A stretch of DNA of 64,000 bases from Xanthomonas sp. NCPPB 1128 (lineage in GTDB: Bacteria; Pseudomonadota; Gammaproteobacteria; Xanthomonadales; Xanthomonadaceae). This document shows positions 13,830 to 30,234 of the stretch, one piece after another. The stretch is from the NCBI RefSeq assembly GCF_001043115.1, contig NZ_LFME01000019.1, forward strand, positions 1 through 64,000, in the 5' to 3' direction. Below the pieces are notes generated by a model. That model ran no database searches, was not told where the DNA came from, and worked only from the letters and a program-made list of their open reading frames with translations. A program made the position numbers and the translations under genes. Position 1 is the first letter of the stretch. Each line of letters opens with the position of its first letter.

Positions 13830-14020
13830 CTAGCCTAGCAATCCGCCTGGGTGCGGGCAAGGAAAATTCTCGCTAAAACCACGCGTTGCGTGCTATCGGC
13901 GAGATCGCGATGGATCGTGGTTCTGGCCCTGCCGGGCCGCAGCCGTTACCCTTTGCGCCGCGGCGACCCCGCCCCTCGCCCGCCTGAATGCGGGCTCATT
14001 CCTCCGCCAAGGCCTGCCCG

Positions 14021-14953: not shown

Positions 14954-14956
14954 GGC

Positions 14957-15121
14957 GGGGATTGGGGAGTCGGGATTGGGGATTCGTAAAAGCTGGCCCC
15001 TGGCGCCTTGAGTCCACGAAGAACCGCGCGATCGCGCGGTTTTTTCGTTTGGCCTGAGCGGAAAAGAAGCCGCCCCAGCCAAGCCGCTTTTGCCAATCCC
15101 CAATCCCGACTCCCCACTCCC
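14957..15121. repeat. GGGATT-type repeats flanking the terminator
   Basis: A GGGATTGGGGAGTCGGGATT-type element at 14957-14986 has its inverted partner at 15092-15121. The rho-independent terminator lies between them. The remainder of the 254-bp gap before the activator gene shows nothing else. Confidence 0.7.
15022..15046 (+). terminator. Rho-independent terminator after the PfkB kinase
   Basis: AACCGCGCG / CGCGCGGTT form a 9-bp GC-rich stem with a two-base centre, followed by a run of six Ts. It lies 69 bp past the kinase stop. Confidence 0.88.
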
Positions 15122-15207
15122 TGCTTTTGTTGCACTGCGGGTTGAGCGCCGGTCCGGTTTGTGCGTCACTTGCTCCAGGGGCCCCCTGGGGGGACGAGAG
15201 CGCGCCC

Positions 15208-17190
<1,983 letters not shown>

Positions 17191-17330
17191 GTTGATGCGG
17201 TATCGCGATCTAAGGGATTTGCTGCATGTCGCAAGTGAAGTCTCGCCTATCGCAACTTGCTATTCGGTAGCGGCCTGAGTGCTGCCGGGTATTCGCATCC
17301 CAACCGCTGAGGCGGCTGGAGGATGTCTGG

Positions 17331-17641
17331 CTTCGATGTCGCGACTGAAGTCGCTCCCACAACAGCCAGTGTCTCGATGAGACCGCACAATCCGAAAGGA
17401 CCTCGATCTGGATTGCCATCGGAGCCAGAGATTTTCCGACTTCGATGTCGCGGATGAAGCCGCTCCTACGACAACAGCTCGCGGGTCGGTGGGACCGCAG
17501 ACTGTGGGAGGGACTTCAGTCCCGACTGCGGTCGAAACCAGATCCGCTGCGGCTTCGATGTCGCGGCTGAAGCCGCTCCTACAGGAAACGCGGCGCCGGT
17601 GACCAGGCGCGAGCCTAGGTAGGAGCGGCTTCAGCCGCGAC
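17331..17641. repeat. Cluster of five REP elements
   Basis: The 539-bp gap between the convergent activator and TonB-receptor genes holds five REP-like elements: 17331-17363, 17440-17475, 17503-17526, 17552-17582 and 17619-17641. They belong to two sequence classes (AGCGGCTTCAGCCGC and AGGGACTTCAGTCCC cores). Closer to the activator stop, GCAAGT at 17231-17236 and ACTTGC at 17255-17260 form a weak inverted repeat. The cluster probably separates two convergent transcripts. Confidence 0.8.
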
Positions 17642-17729
17642 AGTCGTCTGCGCCGCCTGGCGTCCAGTCGTGTGGAAACGAGGATGGCATGCGCCGATCG
17701 GTGCCACCACACACACCGCAAACCGCCCG

Positions 17730-20123
17730 CTAGAAACGCCAGCGCAAGCCGACCTGATACTGCCGCGGGGCGCCAGGCGCGACGAAGCGCGAAGGACCGT
17801 CTTCGACCGCGGCGTCCTGCGGGCGCGCCAGGGTGCCGCCCGGAAACAGGTCCTCGGCGATCGCTGCATACGTCTCGTAGCGACGATCGAACACGTTGTT
17901 GATCCGCAGGTACAACGACACCCCCTCGGCGAGTTCCCAGGTACCGTGCAGATCGAGCAAGGCATAGCCGCCGGTGGACAGGTCGTGGCGCGCCGGTGCC
18001 TCGCCTTCCTCGGGATCCTCGACCAGGCCGTCCTCGTTGCCGCTGGCCACGCGCCGCGACACCGCACGCAGGTCGGCGCCCAGCGACAATTGCGCCAGCG
18101 CCTGCCAGTCCACACCCAGCTTCAGCGTGTTGCGCGGCAGGCCGGCGATGCGCGTGCCCGGCCGCAGGGTCACCGTGCGCTCGCCCGAGAGCAGTTCGCC
18201 GGCGCTGCGGTAGGTGGCGTCCAGGTAGCTGTAGCCGGCGAACCAGCGCAGCGCGCCATGGCTGCCGCGGTAGCTGAGGTCGGCGCCCTGGTAGCGGGTG
18301 CGGTCGACGTTGTCGAAATAGCCCTGCTGGGAATTGGGCGCGCGCAGGAACAGGATGTCGTTGCGGTTGTCGGCGCGATACAGCGAAGCGTTCAGCGCCT
18401 GCGCCGGCGACGGGTTCCAACGCAGGCCGACTTCGTAGGTGCGCGAGACGATCTGCTCCAGGCGCGGATCGGCCTGCAACCCGGTCGGTAAGCGGCACGG
18501 CTGCTCCGGGTCGGCGCAACCGAGTTCGATCGCGGTCGGCGCGCGGCTGTTCTGCGAGGCCGACGCGAACGCGGTGACGCCGTCGCCCAGGCGCTGGGTG
18601 ATGCCCAGCGACGGATTGGCCTTGGCGAACACGAAGCGCTCGCGCGGCAGCACGCCGTCGTCGGCGGTGGCCAGGGTATTGGCGACGGCGACGCGGTTCC
18701 AGCGCAGCGCGCCGCTGAGGTGGGTGGCCTCGCTCAGTTCCCAGGTATCGGCGGCGAACAGCCCCAGGGTGCTGCTGCGGCCGTCGACGCCGGAGAAGAA
18801 TGCGCGGTCCTCGTCCGGATCGGCGACCACCGAGCGGTCGTCCTGCACGAACGCCTCCTGTTCGTACTGGCGGTAGCGCACGCGGTTGCGGTCGTAGGTG
18901 GCGCCGATGCTCAACGCGTGCGCGCCGGTTTGGCGGCTGAGGTTCAGCGCCACGCCCTCGGCATGCTGGCGCATCTGCGTGGTGTTGAGCACGCCGCTGT
19001 GCAGGGCGTCGGCATCGGCGCGCGAGACCGTGCAGCCGGCATCCAGCGGCGTGCCGTCGGCGGCGTAGCCGTCGGCGCAGTCGTCGACGAATGCCTCGTA
19101 GTCGTCGTTGATGTCGCCGTTGACGGTGTCGCGGCGACCCTGCCGGTAGTACGCCAGCAGGTGCAATGCGGTGCGCTCGTCGAAGCGGTGGTCGAACTGC
19201 CCGGTCAGCAGGGTATTGCGGTTGCGGGTCAGGTCCGGCGAGGTGTAGACCGCGGCGCGGTCGTCTTCGTACAACCCAGGTTCGGTGCCCTCGTCGGTGT
19301 AGCGATGGCTCGGCAGCAGGCCATTGCCGACCAGGCGGCTGCGCCCGTGCAGCAGCGACACGTCCCAGTCGGTGCGCTCGCCCTGCCGCCCAACCTTGCC
19401 GAACACGGTGCCCAGGCGGCCGGCGGAGGCATCGCGCCAGCCGTTCTCGTCGAATCCGGTGACCGCGACGAAGGCGTGCAGGCCGTCGGCACCAGCGTAG
19501 CCGTAGGACGCATCCAGGCGCTTGCGCGCACCGCTGCCCACCGACAGGTCGGCGCGCAGGCCCGGCGCGGTCAGGCCGGACTGGGTGGTGAAGGCCAGCG
19601 CACCGCCCAGCGTGTTGGGACCGAACAGCGGATTGGAACCCGGCATCAGCGCGACGCTGCGGATCGCCGCCTCCGGCATCATGTCCCAGCTGACGATGTC
19701 GGCGAACGGCTCGTTCATGCGCACACCGTCCAGGTATACCGACACGCCCTGCGAAGCGCCGGGCAGCGCCGAGGCGCGGAAACCGCGGAAGGTCAGATCG
19801 GTCTGGAACGGACTGCCCTGCACCTCGTTGGTGTCCACGCCATTCATTTCGCGCAGCAGGAAGTCGGTGAGGTTGCCGGCCTGGCTGCGCGCGATGTCGT
19901 CGGCGTTGGCGGTCTGCACTGTGTATGGCAGCAGATCGGCGTCGATCAGCGTGCCGGGAATGGGCGTGGCGGTGACCTCGACCCGATCCAGCGCGGTGAT
20001 CTGCGCGTCGTCGGCGTTGACCGTGGTCTGCGCGCGCGCCGGTGCGGCGAGCAGGCCGATGGCGGTGGTGACGGCCAACGCCAGCAGATTTGCCGACGGG
20101 ATGCGTCCGTGGATGCGGGTCAT
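17730..20123 (-). CDS. TonB-dependent outer-membrane receptor
   Basis: A 797-residue gated outer-membrane transporter. Signal peptide to about 33 (LLAAPARAQ), TonB-box-like DRVEVTATPI, plug domain (DFLLREMNGVDTN, then YLDGVRMNEPFADIV), a 22-strand-type barrel and a terminal aromatic residue (QYQVGLRWRF). The barrel contains an ELGCADPEQPCRLPTGLQAD loop with two cysteines. It is the last gene of the PQQ alcohol dehydrogenase set, 16 bp after the FrmA-like gene. Receptors beside lanthanide-dependent dehydrogenases import metal chelates in methylotrophs, and E. coli PqqU imports PQQ. Either cargo fits; neither is shown by the sequence. Start chosen at the ATG that opens the signal peptide. Confidence 0.9.
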   Translation of the reverse strand: MTRIHGRIPSANLLALAVTTAIGLLAAPARAQTTVNADDAQITALDRVEVTATPIPGTLIDADLLPYTVQTANADDIARSQAGNLTDFLLREMNGVDTNEVQGSPFQTDLTFRGFRASALPGASQGVSVYLDGVRMNEPFADIVSWDMMPEAAIRSVALMPGSNPLFGPNTLGGALAFTTQSGLTAPGLRADLSVGSGARKRLDASYGYAGADGLHAFVAVTGFDENGWRDASAGRLGTVFGKVGRQGERTDWDVSLLHGRSRLVGNGLLPSHRYTDEGTEPGLYEDDRAAVYTSPDLTRNRNTLLTGQFDHRFDERTALHLLAYYRQGRRDTVNGDINDDYEAFVDDCADGYAADGTPLDAGCTVSRADADALHSGVLNTTQMRQHAEGVALNLSRQTGAHALSIGATYDRNRVRYRQYEQEAFVQDDRSVVADPDEDRAFFSGVDGRSSTLGLFAADTWELSEATHLSGALRWNRVAVANTLATADDGVLPRERFVFAKANPSLGITQRLGDGVTAFASASQNSRAPTAIELGCADPEQPCRLPTGLQADPRLEQIVSRTYEVGLRWNPSPAQALNASLYRADNRNDILFLRAPNSQQGYFDNVDRTRYQGADLSYRGSHGALRWFAGYSYLDATYRSAGELLSGERTVTLRPGTRIAGLPRNTLKLGVDWQALAQLSLGADLRAVSRRVASGNEDGLVEDPEEGEAPARHDLSTGGYALLDLHGTWELAEGVSLYLRINNVFDRRYETYAAIAEDLFPGGTLARPQDAAVEDGPSRFVAPGAPRQYQVGLRWRF

Positions 20124-20139
20124 GCCAACTCCTTGCGTG

Positions 20140-21249
20140 TCAGTAAAGGACGATCGATTTGATGCCGCGGCCCGCACGCATCGTCTCGAAGCCGCGATTG
20201 ATGTGGTCCAGCGGCAGGGTTTCGCTGATCAGTTCGTCGATGCGGATCTCCCCTGCCAGGTAGCGCTCGGCATAGGCCGGCAGCTCGCTGCGGCCCTTGA
20301 CCCCGCCGAACGCGCTGCCGCGCCAGGCGCGGCCGGTGACGAGTTGCAGCGGCCGCGTGCTGATCTCCTGCGCGCTCGGTGCCACGCCGAGGATGATGCT
20401 TTCGCCCCAGCCCTTGTGGCAGCACTCCAGCGCTGCGCGCATCGCCCGCACGTCGCCGACGCAGGCGAAGCTGTGATCGGCGCCGCCGTCGGTGAGGTCG
20501 ACGATGACCTGCTGCACCGGCGCGCCGAAATCCTTCGGGTCCAGGCAATCGGTGGCGCCCAGCGCGCGCGCCAGCGGGAACTTGTCGCGGTTGATGTCGA
20601 CCACGATGATGCGTTCGGCGCGCGCCATCACCGCGCCCTGCACCACCGACAGGCCGATGCCGCCCAGCCCGAACACCGCCACGCTCTCGCCCGGACGCAC
20701 CCGCGCGGTGTTGAGCACCGCGCCGATGCCGGTGGTGACCGTGCAACCGAGCAGGCAGGCCTTGTCCAGCGGCGCGGACGGGTGGATCCTGGCCACCGCG
20801 ATTTCCGGCAGCACGGTGTATTCGGCGAAGGTGCTGGTGCCCATGTAGTGCAGCAGCGGGCGTCCGTGCAGCGAGAAGCGGCTGCTGCCGTCGGGCATCA
20901 GCCCGCGCTCCTGGCTGCTGCGGATCGCCTGGCACAGGTTGGTGCGATTGGAACGGCAGTACTTGCACACGCCGCACTCGGGCATGTACAGCGGGATCAC
21001 GTGATCGCCCGGGCGCACGCTGGTCACGCCGACGCCGACCTCCTCGACCACGCCGGCACCTTCCTGGCCCAGGATCACCGGAAACGCCGCCTCGGCGTCG
21101 ATGCCGGACAGGGCGATCTCGTCGCTGTGGCAGATGCCGCTGGCGACCATGCGCACCAGCACTTCGCCGGCCTTGGGCGGCTGCAGATCCACCTCCTCGA
21201 TGGCCAGCGGCTGGTTCGCCGCCCAAGCGACCGCGGCTCGCGTCTTCAT
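20140..21249 (-). CDS. FrmA-like (class III) zinc alcohol dehydrogenase with altered zinc ligand
   Basis: Medium-chain NAD-dependent dehydrogenase resembling glutathione-dependent formaldehyde dehydrogenase along its whole 369-residue length (ECGVCKYCRSNRTNLCQAIR, GLMPDGSSRFS, ALECCHKGWGES, GSAFGGVKGRSELP). Structural zinc cysteines are C92, C95, C98 and C106. Of the catalytic ligands, C40 and C169 are present, but the usual His is Gln (Q62, codon CAG, in ILGQEGAG), followed by the conserved Glu. NAD-binding VFGLGGIGLS is intact. In the operon it would oxidise S-hydroxymethylglutathione or an alcohol or aldehyde formed by the PQQ enzyme. The missing His makes exact activity uncertain. Confidence 0.87.
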   Translation of the reverse strand: MKTRAAVAWAANQPLAIEEVDLQPPKAGEVLVRMVASGICHSDEIALSGIDAEAAFPVILGQEGAGVVEEVGVGVTSVRPGDHVIPLYMPECGVCKYCRSNRTNLCQAIRSSQERGLMPDGSSRFSLHGRPLLHYMGTSTFAEYTVLPEIAVARIHPSAPLDKACLLGCTVTTGIGAVLNTARVRPGESVAVFGLGGIGLSVVQGAVMARAERIIVVDINRDKFPLARALGATDCLDPKDFGAPVQQVIVDLTDGGADHSFACVGDVRAMRAALECCHKGWGESIILGVAPSAQEISTRPLQLVTGRAWRGSAFGGVKGRSELPAYAERYLAGEIRIDELISETLPLDHINRGFETMRAGRGIKSIVLY

Positions 21250-21303
21250 TCCGGCTCTCCCCGCCTCCCCGTCGCGGCACCCGCTGGCGCCGCTCGCCTC
21301 ACG

Positions 21304-22323
21304 TCATTGCGCCACGACCACACCCCATGGCATCTCACCCACCGCGATCTGCTTGATCTCCTTCATCGCCGCCGTATCGATCACGCTGACGCTGTTGGAA
21401 CGGCCGTTGGCCACGTACAGCTTCTTGCCGTCCGCGCTCAGCGCCGGGTTCCACGGCCGTTGCCCGACCGGAATCTCGGCCAGGGTGCGGCGCGCGGCCG
21501 GGTCGATCACGCTGACCGTGCCGGCGCCGTTGGACGCATACACGCGGCTGCCGTCGCGGGCGATGGCGATGCCGGCGGTGCGCTGGCCGGCCGGGATGCT
21601 GGCCACGCGCTTGCGCGCCGCCAGATCGATCACGTCGACCACGTTGGCCGCCTCCTGCGCCACGTACGCCGTCTTGCCGTCGGGCGCGAACGCCATGCCG
21701 CGCGGATGTCCGCTGGTGGCGATGACGCCGGTGGACGTGCCCGCCTTCACGTCGATCACGTCCAGGTCGTTGGAGCCTTCGTTGCTGGTCAGCAACAGCG
21801 CGCCATCCGGGGTGTAGACGCAATGTTCCGGCGCCTGCCCGCGGGTGGCGATGTGCGCGCCGATCGCGAAGCTGGCCGGGTCGATCAGCATCACCTGGTT
21901 CTGCCCTTCCACGCACACCGCCAGTTGCCGGCCATCTGGCGCCACGGCGACACCTTCGGCGTTCTCGCCGATGTCGACGCTGCGCAGCACGCGGTCCTGC
22001 ACGGTATCCAGCTCCAGCAGGCGATGGCCCTGCGCGTCGATGACGTACAGATGCCCGGCCGGTCCCGGCACCACCTGTTGCAGGCGCTTGCCGAGCTGGC
22101 CCTGCGCCGACAGCGTGCGCACCACGCGGTCGCTGCCGGTGTCGATCACCGAGATGGTGCCGCTGCGCTGGTTCGGCACGTAGGCCAGCGCCGTGGCGGC
22201 GGCCGCCGGTGTCGGCACGGCGGCCGCGGCAGCGTCGCCCGCGGCGGGCGCGGACGCGCGCTGGCAGGCCGCGGCGAACAGCGACAGCGCGACCACGATG
22301 GACAGACGCCACGCGTTCCTCAT
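21304..22323 (-). CDS. YVTN beta-propeller lipoprotein linked to PQQ alcohol oxidation
   Basis: A 339-residue protein with a signal peptide and lipobox FAAAC (C20), then about seven YVTN/NHL-type blades (AYVPNQRSGTISVIDTGSD; KLYVANGRSNSVSVIDTAAM). Proteins of this family recur in PQQ-dependent alcohol catabolism clusters, for example in Pseudomonas; their biochemical role is unresolved. Its ATG overlaps the cytochrome gene's stop (ATGA). A 54-bp gap leads to the FrmA-like gene. Confidence 0.88.
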   Translation of the reverse strand: MRNAWRLSIVVALSLFAAACQRASAPAAGDAAAAAVPTPAAAATALAYVPNQRSGTISVIDTGSDRVVRTLSAQGQLGKRLQQVVPGPAGHLYVIDAQGHRLLELDTVQDRVLRSVDIGENAEGVAVAPDGRQLAVCVEGQNQVMLIDPASFAIGAHIATRGQAPEHCVYTPDGALLLTSNEGSNDLDVIDVKAGTSTGVIATSGHPRGMAFAPDGKTAYVAQEAANVVDVIDLAARKRVASIPAGQRTAGIAIARDGSRVYASNGAGTVSVIDPAARRTLAEIPVGQRPWNPALSADGKKLYVANGRSNSVSVIDTAAMKEIKQIAVGEMPWGVVVAQ

Positions 22324-22892
22324 TGCGCGGCGCCCGCCGTCTTGTTGATGGAGTGGATGAAGGCCAGCAGCTTTTCGGTATCGCCCGGCTTGAGCACCGG
22401 ACCGAACGGCGGCATCTGCCCGACCACCTTCTCGTGGCCGATCCGGGTCTTGCCGTGCGCCGTCATGCCAGCGGTGCCTTCGGTGATCAGGGTGCGCAAG
22501 GTGTCGTCGTCGCTGCCGTACACCCAGATGTCGTTGGTCAGCGGCGGGCACATGCCGCCGCCACCGGTGCCGCCGTGGCAGGCGGTGCAGCCGGCGGAGT
22601 TGAAGATCGCCTTGCCTTCGGCGACCAGCTCCGGAGTGACCTTGACCGGCGGCCCCTTCGGAATCGGCGTCACCGCCGCAGCGGGGGCCGGTGCGGCAGC
22701 CGCGGGCGTGGCCGCCGGCGCAGCGGCCGGTGCAGGCGCGGGCGCCGCGGCAGGGGTGGCCGGTGCTGGCGTGGCCGCCGGCGCTGGGGGCGTCTCCTGC
22801 TTGCCGCAAGCGGCCAGCAGCAGGAGCGAGGCAAACACGGACACAGGCAGCAGCACGGAGACGGCGCGACGACGGACGGAAGCAGGACGCAT
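22320..22892 (-). CDS. Lipid-anchored c-type cytochrome, probable electron acceptor of the PQQ dehydrogenase
   Basis: A 190-residue monohaem cytochrome. Lipobox LAAC (C29), a roughly 50-residue Ala/Pro linker (31-80), and one haem site C102-T-A-C105-H106; M160 in GQMPPFGP is the likely axial ligand. The GGMCPPLTNDIWVYGSDDD region resembles cytochrome cL (MxaG/XoxG), the acceptor of methanol dehydrogenases. Start at 22892 fits the signal peptide. It is preceded by a 77-bp gap after the binding-protein gene and overlaps the beta-propeller gene. The linker suggests a tethered haem domain reaching across the periplasm. Confidence 0.88.
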   Translation of the reverse strand: MRPASVRRRAVSVLLPVSVFASLLLLAACGKQETPPAPAATPAPATPAAAPAPAPAAAPAATPAAAAPAPAAAVTPIPKGPPVKVTPELVAEGKAIFNSAGCTACHGGTGGGGMCPPLTNDIWVYGSDDDTLRTLITEGTAGMTAHGKTRIGHEKVVGQMPPFGPVLKPGDTEKLLAFIHSINKTAGAAQ

Positions 22893-22969
22893 GGGGACAA
22901 CACCTTTGCGGAGTGCACGATGGGAAGAGCAGGCCGCGCGAGCGGCATGTGCGGGACGACAGGAAGCAG

Positions 22970-24718
22970 TCATTGCGTGCGTCGGTGCTGGGCCTCCGTC
23001 AACAGGTGGGCGAGTTCGGCATTGCCGCGTTGCTGGGCCAGCGCCGCGGGCGTCTTGCCGTCGGCATCGCGCGCATCGGCCCTGGCGCCGGCGGCGAGCA
23101 GGCGCCGGGCGCTGTCCTCGCGCCCGGCGGCAGCGGCCAGCATCAACGGGGTGACGCCGGCGCGGTTCGCGCGGTCGGCCTCGGCGCCGCGCTTGAGCAG
23201 CAGGTCCAGGATCTTCGGCTCGTTGCGCGCCACCGCGAACATCACCGGGGTGAAGCCGGCCGGGTTGGCGTGGCGCACGCTGGCGCCGGCGTCGAGCAGC
23301 GCCTGCACCACGTCGGCATCGGCGTAGGAGATCGCCAGGTCCAGCGGGGTCCAGCCGTCGGTGGATACCGCCTCGACCATGGCGCGATGCGCCAACAGTT
23401 GCGCGACGCTCTTGCCGTCGTTGGACCAGGCCGCCTTCATCAACGGCGTCCAGCCATTGCTGTCGCGGCGTTCGACCTTGGCACCGGCCGCCAGCAGTTC
23501 GCCAACCAGCAGCGGCGCCTGGTTGCGGATCGCCTGCTGCAGCGGCGGCTCGCCGAGCTGGTTGGGCTTGTCGGCGCTGGCGCCATGGCGCAGCAGCCAC
23601 GCCACGCGCACGCCATCGCCGGCGTCCAGCGCATGCGCCAGTTCCTCGTTGGGATCGGCACCGCCGGCAATGCGCAACTGCAGTTGCGCCAGCATGTCCG
23701 AGGAGGCCTGCGCGCTCGGCGTATCGTCTTGGTCGGCCGGCGGCGCATATGGGCCATGCGAGCGCAGGTCACCGGCGACGATGCAATCGGCGCAGGCCAC
23801 CAGCGGCACGTGGTAGTCGCGCAGGATCGCGTCGATCTTGCCGGCGCTGCGCTGCATCGCTGCGTTGAGCGCATCGCGCAGCGCGGCGTTCTTGCGCGAC
23901 ACCGCCCACGCCATCGAATACTCCAGCACCTCGTTGTCGATGACGTTCAGCGGCACCACGCCGAGGCCGCCATGCGCGGCGTAGTAGCCGGCCACCGCCC
24001 CCCAGGATTCGGCGGCATCGAGCTTGCCCGCAGCAACCTGCTCGGCGAGCTTGCCGGGATGCTCCTGCGGCGCGCTGGCCGAGTCGTAGAACAGATACTG
24101 CACCTCGCCCTGCACGCCATGGTCGAACAGCGCCTGCCGCGCCGGCGAACTCTGGAACACGCCGACCTTGAGTTTCTTCAGCGCCGGATCGTCCAGCGAC
24201 GCCGGCCGCAGGTCCAGGCCCTTGCGGGTGACCAGCACATAGCTGGAGCGATACAGCGGGCGCGTGGGCAGGCCCATCTCGAAGTCGCTGTTCATGTCCA
24301 TCAGCACGTCGCAACGCCCGGCGTTGATCGTGCTGCGCGCCAGGCCGCGCTGGTAGTAGCTGCGCCATTCGTACTCCAGGCGCCGGCCCATCTCCGCGGC
24401 CACCACCTGGGCGATCTTGTTCTGGAAGCCCTCGCCTGCACGATCGGACAACGGCATGTTGCCGGGATCGGCGCAGACCCGCAGCACCGGCGCATCGGCC
24501 GGCAGCGTGGCGGCGGGCGCGGCGGAGGCGGGTGCCGCAGCGGTGGGCGGGGCAGCAGGAGCGCGAGCCGTCGCGGACGACGGCTCGCGCGTACAGCCTG
24601 CGGCGACGAGTCCGAGGCTGCACAACAGCAACACGGCGCGCGCGCCCGCAGGCAGGCGCCGCGAGACGGGCGCCATGCGGCCCCCGCTTGCACCCTGGAC
24701 GCGGCGCCGCCGGCTCAT
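22970..24718 (-). CDS. XoxJ/MoxJ-like periplasmic binding protein fused to ankyrin repeats
   Basis: A 582-residue lipoprotein (lipobox LVAAGC, C42). Residues about 75-310 form a family-3 solute-binding fold of the type associated with quinoprotein dehydrogenases (LRVCADPGNMPLSDRAGEGF, NAGRCDVLMDM, KKLKVGVFQSSPARQALF); XoxJ is thought to help dehydrogenase maturation. A short CADC-containing hinge follows, then about seven ankyrin repeats (about 345-575) with units such as SNGWTPLMKAAWS and PAGFTPVMFAVAR. The start at 24718 was chosen because its ATG overlaps the dehydrogenase stop (ATGA); an in-frame ATG at 24676 is also possible. Confidence 0.88.
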   Translation of the reverse strand: MSRRRRVQGASGGRMAPVSRRLPAGARAVLLLCSLGLVAAGCTREPSSATARAPAAPPTAAAPASAAPAATLPADAPVLRVCADPGNMPLSDRAGEGFQNKIAQVVAAEMGRRLEYEWRSYYQRGLARSTINAGRCDVLMDMNSDFEMGLPTRPLYRSSYVLVTRKGLDLRPASLDDPALKKLKVGVFQSSPARQALFDHGVQGEVQYLFYDSASAPQEHPGKLAEQVAAGKLDAAESWGAVAGYYAAHGGLGVVPLNVIDNEVLEYSMAWAVSRKNAALRDALNAAMQRSAGKIDAILRDYHVPLVACADCIVAGDLRSHGPYAPPADQDDTPSAQASSDMLAQLQLRIAGGADPNEELAHALDAGDGVRVAWLLRHGASADKPNQLGEPPLQQAIRNQAPLLVGELLAAGAKVERRDSNGWTPLMKAAWSNDGKSVAQLLAHRAMVEAVSTDGWTPLDLAISYADADVVQALLDAGASVRHANPAGFTPVMFAVARNEPKILDLLLKRGAEADRANRAGVTPLMLAAAAGREDSARRLLAAGARADARDADGKTPAALAQQRGNAELAHLLTEAQHRRTQ

Positions 24719-26727
24719 CGCACCGTCTTGGCGGCGACCGCCGCGCTGCCGCCGCCCGCAGCCGCGGTGGCGGTCGCGGTGGGCGTGACGGTCTTGCCGG
24801 CGCCGTCGATGCGGAAGGTATGCACCATGCCGCCCAACGGGATCTTGTCGAAGCCGTTGCTGAAAGCCAGGCCGGCGGCACCCAGCGCGCCGTACGGGTC
24901 GCCCGGATCCAGGCCGGCGGCGACCGGCAGGCCGATCCAGCCGCCGATGCCCGAGAACACCGCCACATACTGGTGGCCGTTGGCCTTGTAGGCGATCGGG
25001 TTGCCGATGATGCCGGACGGCAACTTGGTCTCCCAGAGTTTCTTGCCGGTGTCCTTGTCCACGGCACGGAACCAGCCATCCAGCGTGCCGTAGAACACCA
25101 GCCCGCCGTCGGTGACAAGGGTGCCGCTCCACACCGGGAACTTCTCCTTGATCTCCCACTTGGACTTGCCTTCGACCACGTCGAACGCCTTGACGATGCC
25201 CAGCGCGCCCGGCTCGTTCGGCTTCATCAGCACGTTGGCGAACACGTACGGCAGGCCCATCATGGTGTTGCCGCGCTCCTGCGGATCCAGCTCCATGTGC
25301 CAGTTGTTGGTGCCGCAGAAGAACACCGCCGAGTTTGCCGGATCCACCGAGCACGGCTGCTGATCCTTGCCGCCCATCGCCGACGGGAACGCCTCGACCT
25401 TGCGGCCGCGCTCCAGCGGCGAATGCGCCGCGACCTTGACCGGGCGCCCGGTCTTCATGTCGATGCGCTCGGCCCAGTTGGCCGGCACGAACTTGTTGGC
25501 GCGCAGCAGCGTGCCGTCGCGGCGGTCGAGCACGTAGGCGAAGCCGTTGCGGTCGAACTGCACCACCGACGGGACCTGCTTGCCGTCGATGGTCAGGTCC
25601 ACCAGGATCGGCTCGTTGATGCCGTCGTAGTCCCACTGGTCGAACGGCGTCTTCTGGTAGCCCCACACCGCCTCGCCGGTGTCGATCTTGCGCGCGAACA
25701 GGGTCATCGACCACTTGTTGTCGTACTCGCCGGTATCGCATTCCTTCTGCGTGGTCTTGCCGCAGCGGTACGACGGGCTCCACAGGCCTGGATTGCCGGT
25801 GCCGTAGTAGACCAACTTGAGTTTCGGGTCGTAGCTGTACCAGCCCCACGCCGCACCGCCGCCGCGCTTCCAGCCTTCGTCGGGATAGGTCTTCTCGCCG
25901 AGGTCGCCGAGCTGGCCGTGCTGCGGATTGGCCTTGTTGAAGTCCGGGCCGAGGCAGATGTCCTTGTCGGTGCCGGTGGCTTCGCAGGACCAGGCCTGCT
26001 TGCCGTCGGCCAGCGCATACGCGGCGACGCGGCCGCGCACGCCGAACTCGTTGCCGCTGATACCGGCCACCACCTTGCCGTCGGCGATGATCGGGGCCAT
26101 GGTGATGGTCTCGCCCTTCTCGGGATAGGCGAGCTTCTGCTTCCACACTTCCTTGCCGGTCTTGGCATCGAGCGCGATCACATCGCCGCTGAGGCTGCCG
26201 AACACCAGCTTGCCGTCGGCGTAGGACGCACCACGGTTGACCGTGTCGCAGCAGGCCACCGCCACCGCACGCTCGTCCTGCTGCGGGGTGTACTTCCACA
26301 GCACCTTGCCGTTGTCTTCCTGCGACAGGTCGATCGCGAACACGTTGTTCGGGTAGGCGCTGACCATGTACATGGTGCTGCCGATCACCAGCGGCTGGCC
26401 TTCGTGGCCGCGGGTGGCATCGGTCTTCATCTCCCACGACATCTTCAGATTCTTGACGTTGTCGCGGTTGATCTCGGCCAGCGGGCTGTGCCGGTTCAGG
26501 CCGAAATCGCGTCCGATGCCGCCCCAGTTGTCGGGATTGGCGGCGTTGGTGGCGAACTCGCTGTCGGTATCGGCAACCGCGGCCGGCGCGGCGGCCGGCG
26601 GTTGCTGTGCGGCGGCCGGCGCGGCCGGTGCCGCGGCTTCTTCGTGCTTCTTGCAACCCGCCAGCGCCAACGCAGTGGCCAGCGCGAGCAACGTACAAGC
26701 CTGGGTACGACGTGAATGACTGTGCAT
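24715..26727 (-). CDS. PQQ-dependent alcohol dehydrogenase of lanthanide (XoxF-like) type, lipoprotein
   Basis: Oxidises methanol or another alcohol in the periplasm using PQQ. The 670-residue product has a lipobox LAGC (C25), an Ala-rich spacer and an eight-bladed propeller. The vicinal disulfide pair C159-C160 (VACCDTVNRG) lies over PQQ. Metal ligands match the family: E227 (GISGNEFGVRG), N312 (GTGNPGLW) and catalytic D366. D368, two residues on (QWDYDGIN), is the extra Asp that marks lanthanide-dependent enzymes; calcium-type MxaF has Ala there. There is no fused haem domain, consistent with the separate cytochrome gene. Start chosen at the ATG preceded by GAGGGGAG. A sigma-54 promoter match lies 84 bp upstream. 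Substrate range is not determined by these motifs. Confidence 0.93.
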   Translation of the reverse strand: MHSHSRRTQACTLLALATALALAGCKKHEEAAAPAAPAAAQQPPAAAPAAVADTDSEFATNAANPDNWGGIGRDFGLNRHSPLAEINRDNVKNLKMSWEMKTDATRGHEGQPLVIGSTMYMVSAYPNNVFAIDLSQEDNGKVLWKYTPQQDERAVAVACCDTVNRGASYADGKLVFGSLSGDVIALDAKTGKEVWKQKLAYPEKGETITMAPIIADGKVVAGISGNEFGVRGRVAAYALADGKQAWSCEATGTDKDICLGPDFNKANPQHGQLGDLGEKTYPDEGWKRGGGAAWGWYSYDPKLKLVYYGTGNPGLWSPSYRCGKTTQKECDTGEYDNKWSMTLFARKIDTGEAVWGYQKTPFDQWDYDGINEPILVDLTIDGKQVPSVVQFDRNGFAYVLDRRDGTLLRANKFVPANWAERIDMKTGRPVKVAAHSPLERGRKVEAFPSAMGGKDQQPCSVDPANSAVFFCGTNNWHMELDPQERGNTMMGLPYVFANVLMKPNEPGALGIVKAFDVVEGKSKWEIKEKFPVWSGTLVTDGGLVFYGTLDGWFRAVDKDTGKKLWETKLPSGIIGNPIAYKANGHQYVAVFSGIGGWIGLPVAAGLDPGDPYGALGAAGLAFSNGFDKIPLGGMVHTFRIDGAGKTVTPTATATAAAGGGSAAVAAKTVR

Positions 26728-26810
26728 CGTTCTACTCCCCTCGTTGAAGAGCCGCGACAGCTGCACCTGGGCCGGCGTGTGCCACGGAACCTGAAGCGTG
26801 GGTGTCTACG

Positions 26811-26826
26811 AGCAACGTCCATGCCA
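26811..26826 (-). promoter_or_regulatory. Sigma-54 (-24/-12) promoter for the PQQ dehydrogenase operon
   Basis: Read on the minus strand, TGGCATGGACGTTGCT matches the consensus TGGCACRNNNNTTGCW at all fixed positions but one (T for C at position 6). GG and GC are correctly spaced. The predicted RNA start lies roughly 70 bp before the dehydrogenase ATG. A sigma-54 activator gene lies at the other end of the region. Confidence 0.82.
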
Positions 26827-26925
26827 TCGCAGCGCTGCGATGCAACATCCCTTGACGTACGGATCACAACGTCGGTTGTCGTCCCAGAGACGCGCGCCAG
26901 CGCGGTCGAAGGCGTCTCGAGAACG

Positions 26926-26940
26926 TGACACTTTGTGCCA
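26926..26940. promoter_or_regulatory. Candidate activator site 1 (inverted repeat)
   Basis: TGACAC-TTT-GTGCCA, an imperfect inverted repeat (5 of 6 pairs) about 100 bp upstream of the -24 element, a usual distance for an enhancer-type site. Its half-site resembles that of the second repeat at 26984-27000. Confidence 0.5.
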
Positions 26941-26983
26941 TGCCGCTGCATCGCGATTGGCGCAGTGCGGGCACACGTGTCGA

Positions 26984-27000
26984 TGGCACAGCCTGCGCCA
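26984..27000. promoter_or_regulatory. Candidate activator site 2 (inverted repeat)
   Basis: TGGCAC-AGCCT-GCGCCA, 5 of 6 pairs, about 160 bp upstream of the -24 element. It shares the TGRCAC half-site with site 1 but has a different spacer. The rest of the 377-bp gap between the HAD gene and the dehydrogenase contains no gene. Confidence 0.4.
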
Positions 27001-27143
27001 TCGACGCGCATGCGACGCAAGCGCACACGGAGGCGCACGGCGGAACGCGCGACAGCAGCGCGCATTCGCCACGCATGCGCCGAGACGCGGTACTAGAGCT
27101 ACGTGTGGGGTGCGCGGCGGCCGTCAGCCGCCGCGGCACAGCA

Positions 27144-27782
27144 TCAGTGCGGCTGCGGTCCGACGCGGTCCTGCCACCACGCCAGCAGCGCGGCGCAGTC
27201 GGTGAAGTGCAGGTCGGCCAGCGCCGGCCAGGGATTGTCCGGATGCAGCAGCACGGTCGTGGCGCCGGCGTGGCGCCCGCACTGCAGGTCGTAGGCGTGA
27301 TCGCCGACCATCGCCAGCGCCTGCGGCGGCACGCCCCAATGCTCGGCCAGCTGCAGCAGACCGCCCGGATGCGGCTTGGGCGGGGCCTCGTCGCGGCCGA
27401 GGATGGTCACCTCCTCGAACAGGTCATCGACCTCGATCTCTTCCAGGGTCAGCTGCGCCAGCTCGCGCGCGTTGCGGGTGAGCACCGCCAGCCGGCAATC
27501 GGCCGCATGCAGGGTGCGCAGCAGCGCCGGGGCGCCGTTGGCCGCGGTGGCCTCCTGGGCCAGCACGCGCTCGTGCTCCAACAGCCAGGCGTGCTTGCTG
27601 GCGCGCTGCGCGTCCGGCAGCGCCGCCAGGTGCTGCAGGATGTCGGCCTGCGGTGGAATCTGCAGTTCGCGGCGGATCAGCGCGAAATCGTGCACGGCGC
27701 GGGTCAGGGTGCCGTCCATGTCGAACACCCAGTGGCGCACCTGGCACAGCGCCTCGGCCGGCGGCGGCGTGACGGCGTGCAT
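27144..27782 (-). CDS. HAD-superfamily phosphatase (phosphoglycolate phosphatase-like)
   Basis: A 212-residue HAD-IA hydrolase. Motif I VFDMDGTLT carries the nucleophile Asp; motif II LTRN, motif III lysine in PPKPHPGG, and motif IV MVGDHAYDL are all present. A small helical cap follows motif I. It is cytoplasmic with no signal peptide. Five bases separate it from the upstream lipoprotein gene, so it is likely the last gene of a cupin-hydrolase-lipoprotein-HAD operon. Substrate unknown. Confidence 0.88.
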   Translation of the reverse strand: MHAVTPPPAEALCQVRHWVFDMDGTLTRAVHDFALIRRELQIPPQADILQHLAALPDAQRASKHAWLLEHERVLAQEATAANGAPALLRTLHAADCRLAVLTRNARELAQLTLEEIEVDDLFEEVTILGRDEAPPKPHPGGLLQLAEHWGVPPQALAMVGDHAYDLQCGRHAGATTVLLHPDNPWPALADLHFTDCAALLAWWQDRVGPQPH

Positions 27783-27787
27783 CGCGC

Positions 27788-28507
27788 TCAATCCCAGCCC
27801 GGCATCTGCGCGCCGTCCAGGCCGCCGGTCTCGAACACCGCGGTGCGGGTGCCTCCTGCCTTCACCGGGAAGGTGATCTGCAGCACCGTGGTCTTGCGCG
27901 CCAGCTTCCACAGCGCCTTGTCGTCGCTGATGAACATGGCGATGGCCTCGTCGGTCTTGGGCCGCCAGGCCGCGGCCGCGTGCGGCGGCGCGTCGTCGGC
28001 CTTCAGTTCCACCTTGCAGCCGCCGGCGCAGCGGAAATCGCCGGACTGCAGCACCAGGTAGGCGCTGCGCTTCCATTCCGGATGGTCGCGGAACACCAGT
28101 TGCACCGGCTTGGGTCCGCTGCCGTCCACATCGACCTTGTCGCGGCTGTACAGCATCGCCGAGCGCTGCACGCCCTTGCCGGCCGGCACCTGCGAGTACT
28201 GCCAGGCCGCCTGCATGCGCCGCAGTTCGCGCGCCGCCTCGCCCTTGGCCTTGACCTCGGCGTAGCCGGGCTGGATGCGTTCGGCCGCGTCCGAGCCCGG
28301 ATACTGCTGCAGCAGCGCCGCGCCGTGGATCCGCGCCAGGTCCCAGTTGCCGGACTTCACCGCGGCGTCGTACTGCTTGGCCAGGTCGTCGGCGGCCTGC
28401 GCCTTGGCCTGCGCTTCGGCCGCGGCCTGCGCCTTGCGCTCGGCCTCGTGATCGCCGCAAGCGGCCAGGGCGACGGCGCACAGCGCGCCGAGCAGGATGC
28501 GTTTCAT
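27788..28507 (-). CDS. Predicted lipoprotein of unknown function
   Basis: A 239-residue protein with lipobox LAAC (C17) followed by a charged, Ala/Lys-rich helical stretch (about 20-60) that may form a coiled coil, then a mixed domain containing a C-AGG-C pair (FRCAGGCKVEL) and the segment SGDFRCAGG. No family recognised. Its ATG overlaps the stop of the upstream hydrolase gene (ATGA). Confidence 0.82.
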   Translation of the reverse strand: MKRILLGALCAVALAACGDHEAERKAQAAAEAQAKAQAADDLAKQYDAAVKSGNWDLARIHGAALLQQYPGSDAAERIQPGYAEVKAKGEAARELRRMQAAWQYSQVPAGKGVQRSAMLYSRDKVDVDGSGPKPVQLVFRDHPEWKRSAYLVLQSGDFRCAGGCKVELKADDAPPHAAAAWRPKTDEAIAMFISDDKALWKLARKTTVLQITFPVKAGGTRTAVFETGGLDGAQMPGWD

Positions 28508-29472
28508 CGTGGGGTTCCTCGTTGGATCAGGGTGTCGATGGCCTGCGCGACCTCGGCGGGCTTCTCGACGATGGACATATGGCCGCTGTCGTCCAGCAGC
28601 ACCTGGATCGCCTGCGGCAGGCGCTGCGCGTACAGCGCCAGCGCGCTGGCGTCGATCACCGCGTCCTGCACGCAGTTCAGCAGCAGCGCCGGCTGGCGGA
28701 TGCGCGCGGCCTCCTCGAACGGCAGGAACGCCTCCTCGCCGCGGCCGATACGCGCCAGCACCTGCTGTTCGAACGCGGCCTCGCGGCGGCGCCAGGCCAC
28801 CACCGCCGGCACCGCCCAGCGCGGGATGCGCGGCTTGGCGCGCTCGAGCAGGAACACGGTGTCGATATAGCGCTGCAACGACGCGGCATCGTGCACCGCG
28901 AACGGATTGTGCCCGTCCAGCACCGCCTGGCCGAACGCATTGTCAGCGAAGCGCACACCGGCGGCATTGAACAGGCCGACACGGTCGAACACCGTCGGAT
29001 GGCGCGCCGCGGCCAGCGCGGCGATGCCGCCGCCCATCGAGTGCCCGAGCAGCACGCATTCGCTGCCCGTACGGCGCGCGCACTGCAGTGCGAACGCGGC
29101 CACGCGCTCGGCCTGCGCGACGAAGCCGTAGTCCTGCCCGGCGATGCGTTGGCTCTCGGCCCAGCCGGGCAGATCCGGGATCACCAGGTGGTAGCGCGTG
29201 CCCAGCGCGCGCGCCAGCGGCAGCCAGTTCTCCTTGCTGCCGGTGAAGCCGTGCACCAGCAACAGCGTCGGCGCGGCGGGATCGGCCGCAGCGCGCACCA
29301 GATAGGTCCAGGTGTGTCCGGCGACCTGCGTCTGGCGCCGTTGCAGCCCGCTGCCGCGGCGCTGGCGCAGGCTCTCCAGCCGGACCAGCAGGAACGGATC
29401 GCGCAGCACCAGCACCACGCCGATCAGCGCCGCCACCATCAGCAGCACGCCGGCCAGCAACAGCCAGGCCAT
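28504..29472 (-). CDS. Membrane-anchored alpha/beta hydrolase
   Basis: A 322-residue hydrolase with an N-terminal transmembrane helix (MAWLLLAGVLLMVAALIGVV) and an alpha/beta fold: oxyanion HGFTGSKENW, nucleophile elbow GHSMGGG, and a catalytic-type His in SGHMSIVEKP. It resembles lipases or esterases that act at membranes. ATG at 29472 was preferred over an in-frame GTG at 29487; neither has a clear ribosome site. Overlaps the lipoprotein gene downstream. Confidence 0.87.
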   Translation of the reverse strand: MAWLLLAGVLLMVAALIGVVLVLRDPFLLVRLESLRQRRGSGLQRRQTQVAGHTWTYLVRAAADPAAPTLLLVHGFTGSKENWLPLARALGTRYHLVIPDLPGWAESQRIAGQDYGFVAQAERVAAFALQCARRTGSECVLLGHSMGGGIAALAAARHPTVFDRVGLFNAAGVRFADNAFGQAVLDGHNPFAVHDAASLQRYIDTVFLLERAKPRIPRWAVPAVVAWRRREAAFEQQVLARIGRGEEAFLPFEEAARIRQPALLLNCVQDAVIDASALALYAQRLPQAIQVLLDDSGHMSIVEKPAEVAQAIDTLIQRGTPR

Positions 29473-29520
29473 CGTCAACACCAGCACGGCGACACCGAAA
29501 GGCGGAGACGGGTCATGCGC

Positions 29521-29871
29521 TCACACCACCACGTCGGCTTCGCCGAGATGGATCGCCAGCCATACGGTCGGCTGCGCGGGATCGGTGAAGGTCACCCAAT
29601 GCGGCGTATCGGCCGGAATGAACAGATGATCGCCCGGTGCCAGCGCGACCTCGCGCTCGCACAGCGCCACCCGCGCGCTGCCGCGCAACAGCAGGACCCA
29701 TTCGTCGTGTGCCTGCTGGTAGGGCGTGTCCTGCGGCGTGGTCTGCCCGTGCGAGACGATGCGCTCCACGCGGCAACCGGAGCGCCGAAGCAGCTCGGTG
29801 AAGATTTCGCCACCACGCGCATCGGGCAGCGCGGCCAGCAAGGAACCGGAGAGGGCGTGCGCGTCGGTCAT
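29521..29871 (-). CDS. Small cupin-domain protein
   Basis: A 116-residue single-cupin protein with the two cupin motifs in reduced form (HDEWVLLLRGSARVAL and PGDHLFIPADTPHWV), consistent with a metal site using three His and a Glu. Similar small cupins are often annotated as phosphoribosylaminoimidazole carboxylase-like or simply cupin. First gene of the four-gene minus-strand set ending at the HAD phosphatase. Function unknown. The 363 bp from here to the terminator hold no convincing gene. Confidence 0.8.
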   Translation of the reverse strand: MTDAHALSGSLLAALPDARGGEIFTELLRRSGCRVERIVSHGQTTPQDTPYQQAHDEWVLLLRGSARVALCEREVALAPGDHLFIPADTPHWVTFTDPAQPTVWLAIHLGEADVVV

Positions 29872-30234
29872 CTCAGCACCGCCTCGACGGGCGCAGGTGA
29901 GTCCGCTCGCATCGGAATCGGCAGTGTCCTGCCATGGCGATGGCGCTTGCAGCGAAGACTGGAGCGGCGGTGGCGAACGGGGTCATGCACGCATGGGCCG
30001 AGGACCATCGGGACTGCCGAGGATATCGCGAATGCGTGGCAGCGGGTCGCTGCCCGCGAGCAGCGGCATGTGTGGAATTCGTTAACGCCGCGATGGACCG
30101 GCGCGCGTTTCGTGCAGGAAGCGCATATGACGCCGCGCGGCGCGACATTCTGCGGCACGTGCGCAACCATGCCGCCGCGACGATCGCGCCTGCCCCGCGC
30201 GACGCGATCGCGCAACAGGCCGGCCGCACAAACG

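What the first reader, a model, noticed from the sequence alone, without database searches (positions are those of the whole stretch)
20140..26727. Lanthanide-type PQQ alcohol dehydrogenase module
Seen: the dehydrogenase has E227, N312, D366 and the extra D368 in WDYDG, the residue that separates lanthanide-dependent XoxF-like enzymes from calcium-type MxaF (Ala there). It is followed by XoxJ-like, cytochrome cL-like, beta-propeller and FrmA-like genes. Known: XoxF oxidises methanol to formaldehyde or formate, and FrmA handles the glutathione adduct. Inference: this plant-associated genus, not known to me as methylotrophic, carries an alcohol-oxidation module that may use plant methanol released from pectin. 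A pectin-degrading GH28 gene lies in the same window.
Basis: partly seen in the sequence, partly recalled or inferred. Interest (0 to 1): 0.85.

Follow-up and report, generated by a model that had tools for sequence, protein, structure and literature searches.

The report
Membrane-tethered lanthanide methanol oxidation operon
A plant-associated Xanthomonas carries a gene set that looks made for oxidising methanol with a rare-earth-metal enzyme, in an unusual form in which the enzyme and three partner proteins all appear to be anchored to a membrane by lipid tails, so these plant bacteria may draw energy from plant methanol.

Summary
The enzyme at 24715-26727 (-) has E227, N312, D366 and D368 and falls in the XoxF1 clade with the crystallised neodymium enzyme of Methylacidimicrobium thermophilum (902 bits; support 100/100). 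That Xanthomonadaceae carry xoxF1 is already in print.

Beyond the finding: (1) The operon is longer: xoxF, xoxJ, cytochrome c, propeller, frmA and a TonB receptor, with a sigma-54 activator behind it. (2) A -24/-12-like element and an upstream palindrome are conserved before xoxF. (3) XoxJ is fused to ankyrin repeats, in 45 of 46 XoxJ matches of XoxF1 loci. (4) XoxF, XoxJ, cytochrome and propeller all carry lipoprotein signals, conserved in Xanthomonas and rare outside the family. (5) The Asp called diagnostic for XoxF1 is Asn in 31 of 31 family rows. (6) FrmA is a second copy.

Best reading: a sigma-54-controlled, lipid-anchored, lanthanide-dependent methanol oxidation module yielding electrons and formate. 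No RuBisCO was found and no hexulose-phosphate synthase passed its cut-off, so full methylotrophy is unproven. Metal, substrate and lipidation were not measured. New variant of a known kind.

The parts
24715..26727 (-). xoxF1-type PQQ methanol dehydrogenase, 670 aa, predicted lipoprotein (Cys25, Ala/Pro-rich tether to about residue 50); metal-site residues E227, N312, D366, D368; N226 where other XoxF1 mostly have Asp
22970..24718 (-). xoxJ (TIGR03871 periplasmic binding domain, residues 79-307) fused to an ankyrin array (about residues 340-581), 582 aa, predicted lipoprotein (Cys42); overlaps xoxF by 4 nt
22320..22892 (-). mono-haem cytochrome c (CTACH at 102), 190 aa, predicted lipoprotein (Cys29) with a long Ala/Pro-rich tether; likely electron acceptor (XoxG role, inferred from position)
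21304..22323 (-). YVTN/YncE-type beta-propeller, 339 aa, predicted lipoprotein (Cys20); overlaps the cytochrome gene by 4 nt
20140..21249 (-). frmA, S-(hydroxymethyl)glutathione dehydrogenase, 369 aa; second copy in the genome (63% identical to the one at G000:C17:59747-60847)
17730..20123 (-). TonB-dependent outer-membrane receptor, 797 aa, 16 nt after frmA; candidate lanthanide, metallophore or PQQ importer (substrate inferred)
15127..17190 (+). sigma-54-dependent (Fis-type) transcriptional activator, 687 aa, convergent with the operon; likely regulator of xoxF (inferred)
26811..26826 (-). -24/-12 sigma-54 promoter-like element TGGCATGGACGTTGCT, 84-99 nt before the xoxF ATG
26924..26940 (-). 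upstream palindrome TGGCACAAAGTGTCACG, candidate activator binding site
26984..27000 (-). upstream palindrome TGGCGCAGGCTGTGCCA, candidate activator binding site

Best explanation
This is a sigma-54-controlled operon for lanthanide-dependent methanol oxidation of the XoxF1 type, in a lipoprotein form. Shown from sequence: XoxF1 membership, the Ln-type metal site, PQQ synthesis genes, the gene row, the promoter-like element, the lipoboxes and the XoxJ-ankyrin fusion. Inferred: the TonB receptor brings a lanthanide (alone or chelated) across the outer membrane. XoxF1, anchored by its lipid tail, binds it with PQQ and oxidises methanol (or another small alcohol) to formaldehyde. XoxJ-ankyrin binds and activates XoxF and may hold the tethered proteins together. 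The tethered cytochrome passes electrons to the respiratory chain. FrmA with the S-formylglutathione hydrolase encoded elsewhere turns formaldehyde into formate. The gain would be energy and formaldehyde detoxification rather than carbon assimilation.
For: Best solved relative is the Nd-XoxF1 7o6z (902 bits, against 631 for XoxF2 and 516 for MxaF); XoxF1 clade of 51 rows at 100/100. E, N, D, D invariant in 54 rows. pqqB, C, D, E over cut-off. All six genes in the same order in 23 of 24 Xanthomonas-type loci that reach the receptor; genes overlapping or closely spaced. Lipobox in Lysobacteraceae against all other loci (strict rule): XoxF 27 of 32 against 0 of 23; XoxJ 29 of 30 against 1 of 18; cytochrome 26 of 28 against 1 of 16; propeller 28 of 28 against 0 of 18. 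A sigma-54 site scoring 9 or 10 of 10 close to xoxF in 28 of 29 Xanthomonas-type rows and an upstream palindrome in 28 of 29 against a 2.2% background. A second frmA stands beside frmR, gfa and fghA.
Against: Nothing was measured: metal, substrate, lipidation and the receptor's ligand are inferred. Coralloluteibacterium (L055) has plain signal peptides on XoxF, XoxJ and cytochrome, so anchoring is not essential to the type. The cytochrome misses the cytochrome cL cut-off and the propeller misses its own. The receptor has no PDB sequence match better than E 0.068. No formate dehydrogenase alpha model passed its cut-off; an FdhF/YdeP-type oxidoreductase with FdhD was found. Some species lack the operon or carry it broken. 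The sigma-54 rule at score 8 or more hits 14% of random stretches, and the three Lysobacteraceae outside the Xanthomonas group (L032, L034, L055) have neither site.
Confidence: 0.75

Rival explanations
1. An ordinary soluble XoxF1 module: the lipobox matches are coincidental or the proteins are released, and the system differs in no functional way from other XoxF1 operons.
For: Coralloluteibacterium keeps the operon genes with plain signals on three of the four proteins. Lipidation rests on a motif rule, not on an experiment.
Against: Four proteins of one operon carry conserved lipoboxes, in the window followed by Ala/Pro-rich stretches, while the same strict rule hits 2 of 75 homologous proteins outside the family.
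Confidence: 0.15
2. The enzyme's natural substrate is not methanol but another plant alcohol or an aldehyde, as with ExaF/PedH; FrmA then acts as a general class III alcohol dehydrogenase.
For: No RuBisCO match and no RuMP synthase over cut-off, so methanol is probably not assimilated by those routes. Class III dehydrogenases also act on longer alcohols (recalled).
Against: It groups with XoxF1: 902 bits to XoxF1, 307-314 to the two chains named quinoprotein ethanol dehydrogenase, 6zcv and 6zcw. A dedicated FrmA copy fits formaldehyde.
Confidence: 0.2
3. The TonB receptor serves PQQ or an iron chelate and is a passenger with no role in lanthanide supply.
For: Its ligand is unknown, and its best NCBIfam matches are siderophore and haem receptor families, below their cut-offs.
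Against: It is downstream of frmA in 24 of 24 Xanthomonas-type loci that reach it and present in exactly the 16 of 20 genus members that have full-length XoxF, though this is expected of any gene in the operon. No sequence match to a solved PQQ receptor appeared.
Confidence: 0.4
4. The operon is silent or decaying in Xanthomonas and has no present role.
For: No full-length match in 4 of 20 and no match in 7 of 35 genus members; broken in 2 of 35; xoxJ is missing in L021.
Against: Open over the full length in 16 of 20 and over at least 635 residues in 26 of 35, with metal residues and promoter-like sites conserved.
Confidence: 0.08

Closest known systems
XoxF1-type methanol dehydrogenase of Methylacidimicrobium thermophilum AP8 (PDB 7o6z; PMC8546591)
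   Same: Same clade (100/100), same metal ligands, Gly at the Gly259 position, a small residue at the Cys240 position (Ala here)
   Different: Asn in place of Asp172, reported there as diagnostic of XoxF1; a lipobox and tether on the enzyme. The related Methylacidimicrobium loci L037 and L039 have no lipobox on any of the four proteins and no frmA or TonB receptor match, within 13 and 9 kb of DNA
XoxF system of Methylorubrum extorquens AM1 (XoxF, XoxG, XoxJ; lut genes; PMC7391723, passages read)
   Same: XoxF with XoxJ and a cytochrome; a TonB receptor used for lanthanide uptake
   Different: There the receptor gene lutH is one of the lut genes of a lanthanide transport cluster; another XoxF clade (XoxF5 by PMC8546591 passages). 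Outside XoxF1, the XoxJ of the 2 loci examined here (L057, L058) matched without ankyrin repeats
XoxF3 gene clusters of soil bacteria with XoxG, XoxJ, YncE-type propeller and TonB receptor (PMC10875860, passages read)
   Same: Much the same set of partner genes
   Different: Different XoxF clade; lipoboxes, ankyrin XoxJ, frmA and sigma-54 control not mentioned in the passages read
PedE/PedH and ExaF ethanol dehydrogenases
   Same: PQQ-dependent; ExaF/PedH are listed as rare-earth-dependent in an abstract seen in a listing (PMC11845868)
   Different: Far lower similarity (307-314 bits to 6zcv and 6zcw against 902 to XoxF1)

Membership tests
XoxF (lanthanide-dependent methanol dehydrogenase) | Extra Asp two residues after the metal-binding Asp (WDYDG; Ala in MxaF) | tested here: met
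   D366 and D368
XoxF (lanthanide-dependent methanol dehydrogenase) | PQQ-dependent methanol/ethanol dehydrogenase family over the curated cut-off | tested here: met
   TIGR03075, 596 over 480 bits
XoxF (lanthanide-dependent methanol dehydrogenase) | Activity with Ln3+ on methanol | not testable with these tools
   needs enzyme assay
XoxF1 clade | Groups with 7o6z apart from XoxF2, XoxF5 and MxaF | tested here: met
   51-row clade 100/100; XoxF3 and XoxF4 references were not in the tree
XoxF1 clade | Asp before the metal-binding Glu (Asp172 in AP8), called diagnostic in PMC8546591 | tested here: not met
   Asn226 in the window and in 31 of 31 Lysobacteraceae rows; Asp in 18 of 20 other XoxF1 rows. 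The tree puts it inside XoxF1, so the residue is not a perfect marker; I file the enzyme by the tree, as a variant
XoxG / cytochrome cL | TIGR03872 over cut-off | tested here: not met
   26.8 against 147.8 bits; the role is inferred from position
XoxJ | MoxJ/XoxJ-type binding-protein domain | tested here: met
   TIGR03871 249 over 212; profile hits PDB 6onp XoxJ at 203 bits
Lipoprotein | Lipobox Cys after a basic n-region and hydrophobic stretch | tested here: met
   four proteins, by a rule of my own
Lipoprotein | Covalent lipid | not testable with these tools
   needs labelling
Complete methylotrophy | A C1 assimilation route | tested here: inconclusive
   No RuBisCO match; no HPS over cut-off; serine cycle and H4MPT route not searched
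Lanthanide TonB receptor (LutH type) | Similarity to, or ligand shared with, a proven Ln receptor | not tested
   no LutH sequence was on hand; position in the operon only

The most novel reading that the evidence does not exclude
Xanthomonas has an outer-membrane-tethered rare-earth enzyme complex: XoxF1, XoxJ-ankyrin, cytochrome and propeller hang by lipid tails next to the TonB receptor that imports the metal, the ankyrin arm acts as the scaffold, and Asn226 retunes the metal site. Methanol oxidation would then be organised at the outer membrane rather than free in the periplasm.
Probability: 0.2. Interest if true: 0.78.

Novelty: new variant of a known kind. Interest (0 to 1): 0.5.

Why it matters
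Xanthomonas is a large genus of plant-associated bacteria, many of them crop pathogens, and plants release methanol. A conserved lanthanide methanol oxidation operon would make rare earths useful metals for these bacteria and methanol a possible energy source on leaves. The lipid-anchored form, if confirmed, would be an unusual layout for a PQQ methanol dehydrogenase. The ankyrin-XoxJ fusion gives a handle on the poorly understood role of XoxJ. The natural Asp/Asn split next to the metal-binding Glu, including an Asp and an Asn form in one strain (Methyloceanibacter methanicus R-67174, L041 and L049), makes the role of that residue testable without engineering.

Tried and rejected
Rejected: (1) chance, or an Asp outside the metal site (D368 aligns with the second Asp of WDYDG/WDFDG in four XoxF structures). 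(2) ExaF/PedH-type enzyme (scores). (3) The Fdh-alpha-like hit at G000:C19:78496 (501 bits, under its cut-off) as the formate dehydrogenase: by my reading of the first residues of its neighbours it lies among nitrate assimilation genes; no family search was made on it. (4) A known RNA element near the operon: no Rfam match at gathering thresholds in 14000-30000. (5) PDB sequence relatives of the TonB receptor: none up to 1e-5, one at E 0.068. (6) Structure search of the XoxJ-ankyrin model: the machine was busy twice and I did not pursue it; the second structure job was not used. (7) An alignment of 18 receptors (A2) gave only the general TonB receptor domains, plus one weak barrel match in one member.

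Led nowhere: the paper cited by PMC9258066 for Xanthomonas xoxF1 (PMC3927605) holds none of the words methanol, PQQ, dehydrogenase, xoxF or quinone in its main text. PMC5606694 names Xanthomonas and XoxF1 only in its reference list. The review doi 10.1007/s00253-014-5766-8 is not held. The first lipobox script cut the sequence too early and missed most sites; one search replaced it and one search gave the counts.
Full report
What is there. The window lies on contig C19 of a 4.95-Mb genome. The closest named relatives among the fetched loci are Xanthomonas sp. F10 (98% XoxF identity; 93.3% of DNA over 21.8 kb) and X. bonasiae FX4 (95%; 89.4% over 8.2 kb). On the minus strand six genes follow one another: xoxF 26727-24715, xoxJ 24718-22970, cytochrome c 22892-22320, propeller 22323-21304, frmA 21249-20140, TonB receptor 20123-17730. 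Spacings are -4, 77, -4, 54 and 16 nt, which fits one transcript. A sigma-54 activator (15127-17190, +) points towards the operon from beyond the receptor. Of 27 Xanthomonas-type loci (L009-L031, L033, L035, L036, L047), 3 end before the receptor; of the other 24, 23 have all six genes in this order and one (L021) lacks xoxJ; in L033 xoxF itself is split. Among 32 Lysobacteraceae rows the receptor is present at 50% identity or more in 27, frmA in 26 and the activator in 20; many loci end before these genes.

The enzyme. The tree of 59 rows puts the window in a clade of 51 with the Nd-XoxF1 structure 7o6z (100/100), and within it in a Lysobacteraceae clade of 31 (100/100). Rows left out of the tree: L033, L060, L062 (short) and L063 (the window itself). 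References were one XoxF1, one XoxF2, two XoxF5 (6dam and 6oc5; clade names partly recalled) and one MxaF; XoxF3 and XoxF4 were absent, and the tool warned of long branches. PMC8546591 (results section part 1 and passages read) reports that Asp172, just before the Ln-binding Glu, is diagnostic for XoxF1. Here that residue is Asn226. It is Asn in 31 of 31 Lysobacteraceae rows (the window and 30 loci; the fragment L062 was left out, as were L063, the window itself, and L064, a near-duplicate). It is Asp in 18 and Asn in 2 of 20 other XoxF1 rows, and Ala (2) or Gly (1) in 3 non-XoxF1 rows. The two other Asn cases (L048, L049, Methyloceanibacter) had no xoxJ match in their loci. The residue at the place of Cys240 in AP8 is Ala in 30 and Ser in 1 of 31.

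Lipid anchors. XoxF (Cys25), XoxJ (Cys42), cytochrome (Cys29) and propeller (Cys20) each have a basic start, a hydrophobic stretch and a lipobox, followed in the window by an Ala/Pro-rich stretch. By a strict rule of my own the counts, Lysobacteraceae against all other loci, are: XoxF 27 of 32 against 0 of 23; XoxJ 29 of 30 against 1 of 18; cytochrome 26 of 28 against 1 of 16; propeller 28 of 28 against 0 of 18. With a looser rule XoxF is 30 of 32 against 1 of 23. Misses under the strict rule: L055 (plain signals on XoxF, XoxJ and cytochrome), L029 (XoxF N-terminus not found in frame), L021 (cytochrome, where xoxJ is missing), and L032, L034 and L062 (XoxF, recovered by the looser rule). In the printed rows no protein has Asp right after the Cys, which by the E. 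coli sorting rule (recalled) would mean the outer membrane; whether that rule holds in Xanthomonas I do not know.

XoxJ-ankyrin. The XoxJ domain (79-307) is followed by ankyrin repeats to near the C-terminus. Counting a match that reaches residue 480 or beyond, 30 of 30 Lysobacteraceae and 15 of 16 other XoxF1 loci that have a xoxJ match pass (the exception, L042, is a short match), and 0 of 2 non-XoxF1 loci. Seven loci had no xoxJ match (L021, L048, L049, L059, L060, L061, L062). The profile hits solved XoxJ (6onp, 203 bits) and many ankyrin proteins (60 of 585 matches shown). The predicted structure (mean pLDDT 78.7, pTM 0.49) shows a low-confidence first 70 residues, a binding-protein domain, a low-confidence linker (323-337) and a helical repeat array from 340 to 581; the low pTM leaves the relative placing of the two domains open. 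'Ankyrin' with 'xoxJ' gave 0 papers; 'ankyrin' with 'methanol dehydrogenase' and 'xoxF' gave 2, one of which I read in passages (unrelated) and one I saw as a listing only.

Regulation. A site of the form TGGCAC-N5-TTGC scoring 9 or 10 of 10 lies 57-133 nt before the inferred xoxF start in 28 of 29 Xanthomonas-type rows (the 29th, L010, scores 8; the rows are the window, L009-L031, L033, L035, L036, L047, L062), in 0 of 3 other Lysobacteraceae (L032, L034, L055) and in 4 of 21 other loci (L044, L045, L050, L051) (L046 and L060 start too near the gene). The rule at score 8 or more hits 14% of random stretches, so the weight lies in the conserved position. A palindrome near TGGCACA-N3-TGTGCCA (11 or more of 14) lies further upstream in 28 of 29 of the same rows (not in L012), in 0 of 3 and in none of the 21 others apart from a hit in L044 on the promoter itself, against a background of 2.2%. 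With the linked activator this makes sigma-54 control likely.

Cofactor and C1 fate. pqqB, pqqC, pqqD and pqqE are present; pqqE is over its cut-off in 19 of 20 genomes of the genus. A second frmA (63% identical) sits with frmR, gfa and fghA on C17 (the FrmR score, 130.6, is just under its cut-off of 133), so the module's frmA is an extra copy. No RuBisCO match was found and no HPS match over cut-off. The plausible formate enzyme seen is an FdhF/YdeP-type oxidoreductase next to fdhD. The serine cycle was not searched.

Distribution. Full-length XoxF at 90% identity or more: 16 of 20 genomes in the window's genus, its own included, and the receptor is in the same 16. In the second Xanthomonas genus group: 28 of 35 have a match, 26 of them over at least 635 residues in one frame, 1 split in two frames, 1 broken, 7 without. 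In a spread of 159 family genomes: 17 match at E 1e-120, 14 of them at 76% identity or more and 3 at 45-48%.

What is known. PMC9258066 (passages read) lists Xanthomonadaceae among 13C-methanol-labelled taxa and says that xoxF1 suggests methylotrophic potential. The family's xoxF1 is therefore not new. Searches for Xanthomonas or Xanthomonadaceae with xoxF, xoxF1, methanol dehydrogenase or PQQ-dependent dehydrogenase showed in titles and abstract starts no study of this operon; of the papers listed I opened only PMC9258066 and PMC5606694, in passages. 'Lipoprotein' with 'xoxF' and 'methanol dehydrogenase' gave 9 papers, seen as a listing apart from passages of PMC7589939, in which the word concerned gliding motility. 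So I cannot say that a lipid-anchored XoxF is unreported. XoxJ interacting with and perhaps activating XoxF, and a TonB receptor (LutH) acting in lanthanide uptake, are from PMC7391723 (passages read). XoxF3 clusters with XoxG, XoxJ, YncE-type propeller and a TonB receptor are from PMC10875860 (passages read).

Verdict. The finding is real and its core is a known kind. The lipid-anchor signals, Asn226 and the sigma-54 signals are conserved and, in the loci examined, largely confined to this family or genus; the ankyrin-XoxJ fusion is a trait of XoxF1 operons at large.

Noticed in passing
L071:7077-8909 (-) (G018:C1, about 3.085 Mb): One genome of the genus carries a second, distant PQQ dehydrogenase (45% in the match, which counted one TAG inside its stretch; open frame of 610 aa) with LFDYDAINE at the metal site, beside genes that by my reading encode a cytochrome c, cytochrome oxidase parts and a XoxJ-like protein.
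   Followed up: partly
L048 and L049: Methyloceanibacter XoxF1 paralogues with Asn at the Asp172 position and no xoxJ, cytochrome, propeller or frmA match in their loci; M. methanicus also has an Asp-type copy (L041).
   Followed up: partly
L021: In this X. arboricola pv. juglandis locus xoxJ is missing between xoxF and the cytochrome gene, and the cytochrome lacks a lipobox in the stretch examined.
   Followed up: partly
L062, L033 and genomes G184, G200; genomes without a full-length match: Broken or partial xoxF copies in some species. Of the 11 genomes with no full-length match or no match at all (4 of 20 and 7 of 35), 8 are 4.6 Mb or smaller.
   Followed up: no
window 4940-5635 (-): The only GH28 (pectin-degrading type) match reported in the genome lies in the window, about 12 kb from the TonB receptor; one pectinesterase match is at G000:C1:5626-6234.
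   Followed up: partly
L074:1163-4344 (G000:C31): fdhD followed by an FdhF/YdeP-type oxidoreductase, with what reads like a transporter gene upstream; a candidate for formate handling.
   Followed up: partly
L038, L054, L045, L050: TonB receptors (27-32% identical) and sigma-54 activators (37-55%) also occur near XoxF1 operons in Verrucomicrobia and other Gammaproteobacteria.
   Followed up: no
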